Assembly: GCA_030748575.1 (NCBI GenBank)
Contig: JASMLR010000002.1
Coordinates: forward strand, 27,939-91,938
DNA from: Phycisphaerales bacterium
GTDB lineage: Bacteria > Planctomycetota > Phycisphaerae > Phycisphaerales > SM1A02
Reading direction: 5' to 3'
DNA: 64,000 nt
Shown here: piece by piece, positions 40,670 to 43,005 of the stretch
How the letters are laid out: each line of letters starts with the position of its first letter
Position numbering within the stretch: position 1 is the first letter of the stretch
Translations under genes and position numbers: made by a program
The notes under the pieces: generated by a model
The model's input: only the letters and a program-made list of their open reading frames with translations
Told to the model about the DNA's origin: nothing
Database searches by the model: none

Positions 40670-41230
40670 ATGACGATGCACGCTGCCCGAAGTCTGGTCT
40701 TTGTTTCGCTGCTTGCAGCGACGGTGCTGGCGATGGCCTGCAGCTCAAGTTCTCCGGCGCCGGCAACAGAAGGCCAGCGGCTTGACAGTGCCAACGCTTC
40801 GTCGTCGGCGCTGGATGGGTTCAGGCGTGATCCAAAGGCCGGGAAGTTCTTTGACACAGCCTATGGTTGGGCGGTGTTTCCGAAGATCACCAAAGGCGCC
40901 GTTGGTCTGGGTGTCGCGTCCGGATCGGGGGAGGTCTATGTTGGAGGGTCGCTCATCGGCTACGCGAAGGTGACAAGTGTGACCATCGGCGCGCAGATCG
41001 GCGGGCAGACGTTCTCGGAAATCATCTTCTTTGAGAACCGCTTCGCACTGGACAAGTTCAAGAACAACCAGTTCACCGGCTCAGCGTCTGCTGGTGCGGT
41101 TGCCGGTGAGAGCGGCGGACTCAACATGGCCGACTACAGCCATGGGGTCGCCATCTTCACGCGAAACAACAGCGGCCTTATCGTGGCGGCGGATGTCGGC
41201 GGCCAAAAGTTTGAGTACGAATCGAAATAG
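40670..41230 (+). CDS. SYLF-domain (Ysc84-like) lipoprotein
   Basis: 186 aa. Lipobox LAMAC with a following Ser run (CSSSS), so a lipoprotein. The rest is the SYLF/Ysc84 fold: GWAVFPKITKGAVGLGVASG, GGSLIGYAKV, then the SEIIFFEN and FARxNSGL-like segments. The domain binds lipids in eukaryotes; in bacteria its role is unknown. The ATG at 40670 has AAGGAG seven bases upstream. A 6-bp hairpin (AGGCCC/GGGCCT, 41229-41247) overlaps the stop codon and may end the transcript. Confidence 0.88.
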   Translation: MTMHAARSLVFVSLLAATVLAMACSSSSPAPATEGQRLDSANASSSALDGFRRDPKAGKFFDTAYGWAVFPKITKGAVGLGVASGSGEVYVGGSLIGYAKVTSVTIGAQIGGQTFSEIIFFENRFALDKFKNNQFTGSASAGAVAGESGGLNMADYSHGVAIFTRNNSGLIVAADVGGQKFEYESK

Positions 41231-41323
41231 GCCCTTCTGGCGGGCCTGAACAGGGTCGCGGCCATGGGCTCCACCGGTTGTCCACCGGGTTGTCCCCCAT
41301 TTCATCCACCGAGTTCGCGGCGC

Positions 41324-41352
41324 TTGCACCCGCGGCTGCGGCGGCGTATTAC
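41324..41352 (+). promoter_or_regulatory. Predicted promoter of the 1.2-kb RNA locus
   Basis: TTGCAC (41324-41329), a 17-base spacer and TATTAC (41347-41352). It matches the form of the two tRNA promoters in the window (TTGCCG-18-TACAAT and TTGCCC-16-TACCAT). Transcription would begin near 41360. Positions 41231-41323 hold only the possible SYLF terminator hairpin and nothing else I can name. Confidence 0.45.
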
Positions 41353-41359
41353 TACATGC

Positions 41360-42561
41360 GTTGTCGCTGCCTGCTCGGCCGAGGCCGGACTGGCGCAAGG
41401 CTCTTTGAAAAGCGGAGAAGTACGTGTCGGACGGCGGGCCCCGCCCGACCTGGAACGGAGCGAGATCGAAAGGTCGAACTCGACGCGCGTGGTTTCCCGA
41501 CATTCCACGATGCGGATCACCAGGAAGGAACACAGGGCGCCCGCAGTCACATTCGAAGGCCGCCGCGGTTCAAACCGCCGGCAGGCCACTGCAGAATCGA
41601 ATGGTGATCGGCAAGGACGTGACGAACCCGCTTCGGCGGGGGATACAACTCCGTTTCGACGGAGGGAGCGTGCCGCGTGAAGGCGAGTCTCGCAAGAGGC
41701 AAGCAGGCATCGGCAGGTCAGTGTGTGAGGTCGGCAGCGTGTGGACCCGAAAGGGAACCCCCTCGGCTGGCCAGACCACATTGAGCAAGTTCAACAGAGG
41801 AGACTCTGAAGGACCAGGACCCGAAAGGGCCCTGGCCACGCCACCGAACACGGACGACGCCTCATAAAGTGAATGATGCATGCCTGCGGGCACACGTCAT
41901 TCGCGACGCGTCGATCTTGACAGTCCAGAGCCCCGCCCCACAGAACCGTTCGGTGTCCTGCACCGGGCGATGAAAGGGGGGACAGGGGAAGTTCGAGGGC
42001 GGCATGACTGCCCGGGCCGGCGGTTCCGGCGGCCCGAGCAATTGATGCCGTGGACCACCTCACGCGACCAAGTCGAGCAGCCAGCCGATGCCCACACCGG
42101 ACGTGGGACGGCAACGTGTATGTGCGTGCAAACGTGCAGACACAGCGTCAAGGTTGGTGGAAGTCTTGCCAAGACCGCGAGGGGGACGATGACCAAGAAG
42201 TACGGGATCCCCGGAGTCGACGGACACCGGGGGAGATCCGAATGCCGTACCGAAAAGAGCATCGCTCGAAGAGGATGGAGCGGAAATGCCACAACGCTCG
42301 TCGCGAGGCAACGCGGCGGGGCCGCGGCCATTCAAGGACACCGACACGCCCGATGTGCACCGGGTAAGGCAGGGCCGCCTGCCGAGATCACCGCGAGCGC
42401 CGATCATCGTCGACCGTCGAAAGACGTCGAATGAGGATCGGTCTGGTTCAGCCCGGCCGAGCAGCCAGCGACACCTCAAGTGTGTGGGGGGTACCCCCGC
42501 GCTTGGGGGAGGAGAGAAGAAGCGGGGACGAGTTTGACGACTCGTCCCCGCGTTTCTTTTT
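41360..42561 (+). ncRNA. Candidate large structured non-coding RNA
   Basis: About 1.2 kb without a protein-like frame on either strand. On the plus strand it is dense with hairpins capped by stable tetraloops. GAAA loops: 41464-41475, 41746-41755, 41814-41835, 42415-42426. GCAA loop: 42122-42137. TTCG loops: 41627-41640, 41649-41664. Longer pairings: GGCAT/ATGCC around CGGGCCG/CGGCCCG (42001-42049), GGATC-CCCGG with CCGGG-GATCC (42205-42239), GGCAGG-GCCG-CCTGCC (42368-42383), CCGATC/GATCGG enclosing the last GAAA hairpin (42400-42441). A promoter-like pair precedes it and a 12-bp terminator closes it. The GNRA/UUCG loops fit only the plus-strand transcript. I could not match it to RNase P, tmRNA, 6S, SRP, rRNA or a group II domain V. 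It may be a new class or a diverged member of a known large class such as GOLLD, ROOL or OLE. Confidence 0.55.
42522..42561 (+). terminator. Strong intrinsic terminator of the RNA locus
   Basis: A perfect 12-bp stem (GCGGGGACGAGT, 42522-42533, with ACTCGTCCCCGC, 42540-42551), a 6-base loop and then GTTTCTTTTT. No protein gene on the plus strand ends within 1.2 kb upstream, so it must close a non-coding transcript. From 42562 to 42633 I see nothing further. Confidence 0.9.
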
Positions 42562-42633
42562 GCGCACTTGGCGTTTTGGGGGGGCGTTTGGAGGGGGCGT
42601 TCGGCGGTGCGTGCGCCGCTGAGGGCGGCCTGG

Positions 42634-43005
42634 TTACCCGGCGCGGACGCCGTCGATGGGCAACGCCGGTGGTATGTCTTCCTCCGAGGGCACCATCAGA
42701 TCGATCGTGTTGATCCAGGCCTTCGGGATCTTCTGCACACTTCCCACCTGATCAGGACCCCGTGAGTCGGTCAGCGCGATGAACTGGTCGCACTCGTGGA
42801 TCAGCAGACCGACGGTATGCACCTCCGCAAGTGGGCGGAGCGCGAACTCGACCATGTCTTCGGGGTCTTCCCAACCCGGCCCGCCTCGCGCCTCGGCGTC
42901 GACCCACCGGACCGATACGACTGGCCACGACTGTGTCAGGGTTCGATCAACATCATCCGAGTGGGTGGACCCTTGTACTTCGCTTCCAGGCCTGACGTTG
43001 GGCAT
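42634..43005 (-). CDS. Small protein resembling short phage hypothetical proteins
   Basis: 123 aa, acidic, with no signal or membrane segment. The core, VVSVRWVDAEARGGPGWED, followed by VHTVGLLIHECDQFIALTDS and VQKIPKAWI, recalls a class of short phage proteins built as V-RW-D...GW-D...VG-L--E-D--I-L......IP---I. This likeness is from memory of the pattern. GGAGG lies seven bases before the ATG at 43005, a strong ribosome site. The open frame upstream of 43005, antisense to the ankyrin gene, is not coding. Its 3' end faces the terminator of the RNA locus. Confidence 0.65.
   Translation of the reverse strand: MPNVRPGSEVQGSTHSDDVDRTLTQSWPVVSVRWVDAEARGGPGWEDPEDMVEFALRPLAEVHTVGLLIHECDQFIALTDSRGPDQVGSVQKIPKAWINTIDLMVPSEEDIPPALPIDGVRAG

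What the first reader, a model, noticed from the sequence alone, without database searches (positions are those of the whole stretch)
41324..42561. Candidate 1.2-kb structured non-coding RNA of possibly new class
The only large gap in a dense genome region carries a promoter-like pair, at least seven tetraloop hairpins (four GAAA, one GCAA, two TTCG) all oriented for the plus strand, several long-range pairings, and a 12-bp intrinsic terminator with no plus-strand protein gene upstream to justify it. No frame on either strand has protein-like composition. Very long, ornate bacterial RNAs are rare and mostly of unknown function. I do not recognise the motifs of RNase P, tmRNA, 6S, SRP, rRNA or group I/II introns. 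It could also belong to a known large class (GOLLD, ROOL, OLE, HEARO) too diverged for me to see.
Basis: partly seen in the sequence, partly recalled or inferred. Interest (0 to 1): 0.85.

Follow-up and report, generated by a model that had tools for sequence, protein, structure and literature searches.

The report
New large rRNA-style structured noncoding RNA
A 1.2-kb gap in this marine Phycisphaerales genome encodes a large, elaborately folded RNA that makes no protein, matches no known RNA family, recurs in 14 genomes of the order, and carries the signals normally used to make ribosomal RNA; what it does is unknown.

Summary
The finding is real. Window 41359-42561 (+) encodes a large structured noncoding RNA with no match among 4,227 Rfam families. 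I found 14 members: 7 of 9 genomes of the window's genus and 7 more across three families of the order, none elsewhere. They show no coding signal (129/143 indels are not multiples of three). Covariation is strong: on the genus alignment 101 of 296 pairs have compensatory changes (shuffled 48 +/- 4; slid 19-28). All 13 members with both ends carry a helix of about 25-38 pairs joining the 5' and 3' ends, with unrelated sequence between families, like an rRNA leader-trailer helix. Just inside it lies a BoxA antitermination signal matching those before 16S, 23S and tRNA arrays in the same genomes. A second long-range helix joins the BoxA region to a core about 900 nt away, also with compensatory changes. 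The core holds an invariant palindromic hairpin loop, GUGCAC, which suggests dimerisation. Two congeners cleanly lack the RNA at the same site, so it is discrete and dispensable. RNase P and tmRNA lie elsewhere. Best reading: an undescribed large RNA class made like rRNA and acting in trans, probably as a dimeric scaffold; the function is inferred only.

The parts
41267..41311 (+). array of four TCCAC-type boxes (41270, 41281, 41293, 41305; spacing 11, 12, 12 bp) just upstream of the promoter; resembles DnaA boxes (TTATNCACA)
   Evidence: Conserved in position in homologues. Boxes with <=2 mismatches to TTATNCACA: 39 in 13 upstream regions against 10.5 +/- 3.7 in random genomic segments, 0 of 300. 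That DnaA is the binder is inference.
41324..41352 (+). promoter: -35 TTGCAC, 17-nt spacer, -10 TATTAC; predicted start near 41359
   Evidence: Sequence; conserved in the genus, with equivalents such as TTGCAC-16-TTTAAT (G028) and TTGAGG-17-TTTAAT (G048). Does not pass the strict scan.
41363..41393 (+). P1, 5' arm of the terminal helix
   Evidence: Pairs with 42443-42472 (28 pairs); equivalent helix in all 13 homologues with both ends, better than each of 100 dinucleotide shuffles in every case.
41400..41413 (+). BoxA antitermination signal (GCTCTTTGAAAAGC)
   Evidence: Same motif in the leaders of 16S, 23S and tRNA arrays of relatives and in their copies of this RNA.
41422..41430 (+). P2, 5' arm of the long-range helix (CGTGTCGG)
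   Evidence: Pairs with CCGACACG at 42341-42348; compensatory changes in G002, G040, G056, G069 and a clean T-A / C-G split (6/7).
41604..41851 (+). variable insert with several tetraloop hairpins, mostly absent from G001, G002, G006, G008
   Evidence: Alignment A2.
41992..42051 (+). conserved GAGGGCGGCAUG...GGCCGGCGGUUCCGGCGGCC domain
   Evidence: Nearly invariant in the genus; the GAGGGYGGYRU-like block recurs in G028, G029, G048, G096 and, as GAGAGCGGCGU, in G069.
42155..42477 (+). 3' domain modelled as R1
   Evidence: 39 of 64 pairs with changes on both sides against 20.0 +/- 2.8 shuffled (0/500) and 10-18 slid; 87.7% of cells paired against 33-43% slid.
42341..42391 (+). core CCGACACGCCC-GAUGUGCAC-CGGGUAAGGCAGGGCCGCCUGCCGAGAUCAC: P2 3' arm, hairpin with invariant palindromic loop GUGCAC, and covarying hairpin 42368-42383
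   Evidence: 12-sequence alignment A7; GUGCAC present in all 14 members.
42443..42472 (+). P1, 3' arm of the terminal helix
   Evidence: See P1 5' arm; always about 80-96 nt after the core in homologues.
42516..42561 (+). intrinsic terminator (13-bp GC-rich stem 42522-42551, then T-run)
   Evidence: genus members keep it with compensatory changes; G028, G040, G048, G056, G069, G096 end in terminators of unrelated sequence.

Best explanation
The locus is the gene of a large (about 0.85-1.35 kb in different species), independently transcribed, structured noncoding RNA of an undescribed class found in the order Phycisphaerales. It is transcribed from its own promoter, under an array of DnaA-box-like sites, to its own intrinsic terminator. 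A BoxA near its 5' end would load the rRNA-type antitermination complex (NusB/NusE), so that RNA polymerase completes a long untranslated RNA despite Rho. The two ends pair in a long terminal helix like the leader-trailer helices of pre-rRNA, which probably helps the RNA fold and could be an RNase III substrate. A second long-range helix brings the 5' region to a highly conserved core. The core presents a hairpin whose loop is an invariant self-complementary GUGCAC, so two copies could join by a kissing loop. Shown by comparison: structure, boundaries, lack of coding, BoxA and distribution. Inferred: expression, Nus-factor use, processing, dimerisation, and action in trans as an RNA or RNP scaffold (a catalytic role is not excluded).
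For: No Rfam match in the region at E up to 5. Homologues in 6 of 8 other genomes of the genus and in 7 genomes of three families of the order. Full-length genus alignment: 101/296 pairs with both-side changes against 48.2 +/- 4.4 shuffled and 19-28 slid. 3' domain across families: 39/64 against 20.0 +/- 2.8. Terminal helix in 13/13, each better than 100 dinucleotide shuffles, with unrelated sequence between families. Long-range P2 helix with compensatory changes. BoxA: pattern TCNTTGRCAWGTGA gives 16 sites in 8 genomes and 0 for the reversed control; at least 11 precede 16S, 23S, tRNA arrays or belong to this RNA. In G008 the 23S leader reads TCTTTGACAAGTGA and this RNA TCTTTGAGAAGTGA. Not coding: 129/143 indels not multiples of three, no three-base periodicity. 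Discrete unit: same-site absence in G005 and G007 with flanking genes kept. Not the missing RNase P or tmRNA: both are elsewhere. Leader-trailer helix and BoxA roles in rRNA: PMC10250234; symmetric kissing loops in GOLLD, ROOL and OLE: PMC12286853.
Against: No expression data. The window's own genome has no assembled 16S, so BoxA was compared with relatives; the G000 copy (TCTTTGAAAAGCGG) is less close to the order-level motif than G008's. The GUGCAC loop is invariant, so intermolecular pairing has no covariation support; one of the member searches used a pattern containing GUGCAC (though G028, G029, G040, G048, G056, G069 and G096 were found by BLAST or covariance models), and G008, G040, G048 and G096 have further GUGCAC copies that could pair within the molecule. 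The patchy distribution (14 of about 400 order genomes, with limited sensitivity for diverged copies) and two clean absences show that it is not essential to the lineage.
Confidence: 0.75

Rival explanations
1. A long precursor that is cut into one or more smaller functional RNAs, with the rest as spacer, like a tRNA array or pre-rRNA.
For: BoxA and the terminal helix are pre-rRNA features; conservation is uneven, with a variable insert at 41604-41851 and strong cores at 41992-42051 and 42155-42477.
Against: Conserved pairing spans the whole molecule, including P2 that ties the 5' end to the core; no internal known RNA.
Confidence: 0.13
2. A very diverged member of a known large RNA class (GOLLD, ROOL, OLE, HEARO, raiA, group II intron).
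For: Similar size, ornate structure and possible kissing loop.
Against: No Rfam match to any of 4,227 families even at E up to 5 with permissive filters, none in diverse homologues at gathering thresholds; none in phages, plasmids or viral contigs, while ROOL is known from phages and prophages (PMC12286853); no HNH, IscB or reverse-transcriptase gene noticed beside it.
Confidence: 0.06
3. A cis-acting element: leader, attenuator or long 3' UTR of a neighbouring gene.
For: In the genus it follows the SYLF gene on the same strand; in family f5 it follows HDAC-YkgJ-YkgJ.
Against: Neighbours differ between families; it has its own promoter and terminator; in the window the downstream gene is on the other strand; two congeners lack it with the neighbours kept.
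Confidence: 0.03
4. RNA of a mobile element or prophage.
For: Patchy distribution.
Against: One copy per genome; conserved neighbourhood within the genus and within family f5; no viral, phage or plasmid relative; no mobile-element gene noticed beside it.
Confidence: 0.03

Closest known systems
GOLLD, ROOL and OLE RNAs (large ornate bacterial RNAs)
   Same: Large, elaborately structured, noncoding; homo-oligomers through symmetric kissing loops in those classes (PMC12286853), and an invariant palindromic hairpin loop here.
   Different: No detectable sequence or structure homology; no phage relative found; carries BoxA and a terminal leader-trailer-like helix; found only in Phycisphaerales.
Pre-rRNA transcription units (rrn leader-trailer)
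   Same: Near-identical BoxA motif in the same genomes, and a long helix joining 5' leader and 3' trailer (PMC10250234).
   Different: Not rRNA: no match to SSU or LSU models; BoxA lies inside the terminal helix rather than before its 5' strand.
BoxA-led CRISPR arrays
   Same: BoxA used for a long untranslated transcript other than rRNA (as reported in PMC7862264, citing Stringer et al. 2020; the primary paper was not read).
   Different: No repeat array and no cas genes noticed; a single folded RNA.

Membership tests
Any Rfam 15 family (incl. GOLLD, ROOL, OLE, HEARO, group I/II introns, 6S, SRP) | match to the family's covariance model | tested here: not met
   No match at gathering or at E up to 5 in 41100-42800; none in order-level homologues at gathering.
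RNase P RNA | being the genome's RNase P RNA | tested here: not met
   Canonical RNase P RNA is elsewhere in all 9 genus genomes.
tmRNA | being the genome's tmRNA | tested here: not met
   Match above cut-off elsewhere in 7 of 9 genus genomes, own genome included.
Large ornate noncoding RNA (loose kind) | over 500 nt, complex structure supported by covariation, not coding | tested here: met
Large ornate noncoding RNA (loose kind) | discrete transcript, homo-oligomer | not testable with these tools
   Needs RNA-seq, native gel, cryo-EM.
BoxA-controlled stable RNA operon | BoxA near the 5' end matching the stable-RNA leaders of the same genome | tested here: met
   G008, G040, G048, G096 and G069 (tRNA array); less close in G056; own genome has no assembled 16S to compare.
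BoxA-controlled stable RNA operon | NusB/NusE-dependent antitermination | not testable with these tools
   Needs experiment.
DnaA-regulated promoter | DnaA boxes bound by DnaA | tested here: inconclusive
   Boxes enriched (39 against 10.5 +/- 3.7) but most differ from consensus by two bases; binding not tested.

The most novel reading that the evidence does not exclude
A further product of the BoxA-controlled stable-RNA regime beside rRNA and tRNA: a homodimeric RNA machine (possibly a ribozyme or the core of a new RNP), made and folded like rRNA, timed by DnaA-type sites, with a molecular function unlike any known RNA.
Probability: 0.35. Interest if true: 0.95.

Novelty: new variant of a known kind. 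Interest (0 to 1): 0.85.

Why it matters
Few bacterial RNAs of this size and complexity are known, and most have no known function. This one has strong covariation support, defined ends, a testable quaternary contact, and natural absences in close relatives. Its rRNA-style BoxA and terminal helix suggest that long untranslated RNAs of other kinds may borrow the rRNA-making machinery, and BoxA could serve as a search handle for more of them. A complete genome (ZRK34, CP050848) carries a copy, so expression could be checked directly if that strain is in culture.

Tried and rejected
Rfam at permissive thresholds: nothing. RNase P or tmRNA in disguise: both found elsewhere. Frameshifted protein gene: rejected by indel lengths and lack of periodicity. 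A short ORF after GAGGGCGGC (AUG...): not conserved between G001, G004, G006 and G008 (alignment A2, read by eye). L079 (Proteobacteria MAG): chance pattern match, no structure or terminator, beside a ribonucleotide reductase-like gene. Weak model hits in G039 (inside a coding region), G087, G219, G651: lack the core motif. G036, G037, G011 BLAST hits: not extended by the profile. Replication-origin reading: dnaA is on another contig (G000) or about 1.7 Mb away (G056). RNA beside YkgJ in G044, G052, G060, G053: not detected. Literature searches for a Phycisphaerales RNA of this kind found none, within an open-access library only.

Full report
Observation. Between a plus-strand SYLF/Ysc84 lipoprotein gene (ending at 41230) and a minus-strand gene (from 42634) lies a stretch without a plausible gene. 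It holds a promoter-like pair (TTGCAC 41324, TATTAC 41347), many hairpins and a 13-bp intrinsic terminator at 42522-42551. Rfam finds nothing there, even at E up to 5.

Homologues. A DNA search finds the locus in six of eight other genomes of the genus at 70-79% identity, one cut by a contig end; the gene context was read in full for G001 and is the same. Distant copies appear in G028, G029 and G040. A covariance model of the 3' domain (R1) adds G048, G056 and G096, and a second core model (R2) adds G069: 14 members in all. A search of 392 genomes drawn from the phylum found none outside the order. A degenerate core pattern run over about 85,000 species genomes gave 13 places, 12 in Phycisphaerales or unclassified Planctomycetota and one chance match. 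Viral contigs and phages hold none, and plasmids gave only one 38-base match. From BoxA to the T-run the RNAs measure 813-1323 nt. Absence calls in other genomes are weak, because only a few candidates per genome were scored in the large searches.

It is not coding. Between the window and five congeners, 129 of 143 indels are not multiples of three, and substitutions show no three-base periodicity.

Structure. On an unconstrained MAFFT alignment of nine sequences from two families, the 3' domain has 39 of 64 pairs with changes on both sides (shuffled 20.0 +/- 2.8, 0 of 500; slid by 1-3 columns 10-18), and 87.7% of cells paired against 33-43% when slid. On the seven-sequence genus alignment the full-length structure has 101 of 296 such pairs (shuffled 48.2 +/- 4.4; slid 19-28) and 91.8% of cells paired against 35-42%. 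The structure was derived from these same alignments, so the slid control leans in its favour; the shuffles and the cross-family helices below do not depend on that. Three elements stand out. P1, the terminal helix (41363-41393 with 42443-42472), has an equivalent in all 13 homologues with both ends; each scores above every one of 100 dinucleotide shuffles, while the sequences differ entirely between families. P2 (about 41422-41430 with 42341-42348) ties the region after BoxA to the core some 900 nt away; it shows G-C to A-U in G002, a T-A/C-G split of 6 to 7, and further compensation in G040, G056 and G069. The core hairpin (stem GCCCG/CGGGU, varying at its top pair) displays the loop GUGCAC, invariant in all members; next to it a six-pair hairpin (42368-42383) covaries freely.

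Transcription. Near the 5' end, between P1 and P2, stands GCTCTTTGAAAA (41400). In relatives with assembled rRNA a near-identical motif precedes 16S rRNA. A search for TCNTTGRCAWGTGA in eight genomes gave 16 sites and none for the reversed control. Five precede 16S or 23S rRNA, three precede tRNA arrays, three belong to this RNA, and five are unassigned: two lie near mobile or cassette genes, two are degenerate versions, one was not examined. In single genomes the two forms are nearly identical: G008 23S TCTTTGACAAGTGA against RNA TCTTTGAGAAGTGA; G048 16S TCTTTGACAAGTGA against RNA TCCTTGACAAGTGA. I read this as an rRNA-type BoxA. BoxA is the necessary and sufficient element for forming the rRNA antitermination complex in E. 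coli, and the leader-trailer helix is needed for 30S formation there (PMC10250234). Upstream of the promoter an array of TCCAC-type boxes with 11-12-bp spacing recurs; matches to the DnaA box with two or fewer mismatches number 39 against 10.5 +/- 3.7 in random genomic segments. That DnaA binds them is a guess. Each of three genomes tested encodes two DnaA-like proteins, and the RNA is not next to dnaA.

Independence. Neighbours differ between families, but are conserved within the genus (SYLF) and within family f5 (HDAC-YkgJ-YkgJ upstream in G040, G048 and G056). In G005 and G007 the SYLF gene is followed by only about 65 and 345 bp before the same minus-strand gene, with no RNA. So it is a discrete, single-copy, dispensable gene, not a leader of its neighbours.

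Mechanism. Shown by comparison: structure, ends, BoxA, distribution. Inferred: the RNA is transcribed under Nus-factor antitermination, closes through P1 as pre-rRNA does, is perhaps trimmed by RNase III, and acts in trans. The palindromic loop suggests a kissing-loop dimer; symmetric kissing loops help hold GOLLD, ROOL and OLE complexes together, and some of those loops are likewise highly conserved (PMC12286853). Against this, some members hold further GUGCAC copies that could pair within the molecule, and an invariant loop cannot show covariation.

Comparison and novelty. No known family fits. RNase P and tmRNA are present elsewhere in the genome. As a family it is new; as a kind it belongs with the large ornate bacterial RNAs, with an rRNA-like transcription and end-closing design that I know of in none of them (own knowledge, not an exhaustive search). 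I therefore call it a new variant of a known kind.

Limits. There are no expression data, R-scape was not available, many members are metagenome assemblies, model E-values are rough, and the identity of G-numbered genomes with named records rests on equal contig lengths.

Noticed in passing
L138 (G040:C25), L142 (G069:C594), L144 (G048:C32): Long tRNA arrays (several to more than a dozen tRNA genes within 3 kb) preceded by the same BoxA as rRNA; BoxA may mark all stable-RNA operons in these genomes.
   Followed up: partly
G006:C187:8001-8735: RNase P RNA match spans 735 nt and scores 140 bits, against about 390-400 nt and 246-268 bits for complete copies in congeners; an insertion of about 340 nt or an assembly fault.
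   Followed up: no
L146 (G040:C31:3080) and L145 (G056:C1:3881493): BoxA-like motifs followed by a transposase-like gene and an RHS-like cassette instead of a stable RNA; possibly insertions behind a stable-RNA leader.
   Followed up: partly
G000, G048, G056: Each genome encodes a second DnaA-like protein scoring 275-340 bits, below the family cut-off.
   Followed up: no
L136 (G008:C2:122166): The 23S rRNA has its own BoxA leader about 280 nt upstream, while a 16S fragment lies on another contig, so the rRNA genes may be unlinked.
   Followed up: no
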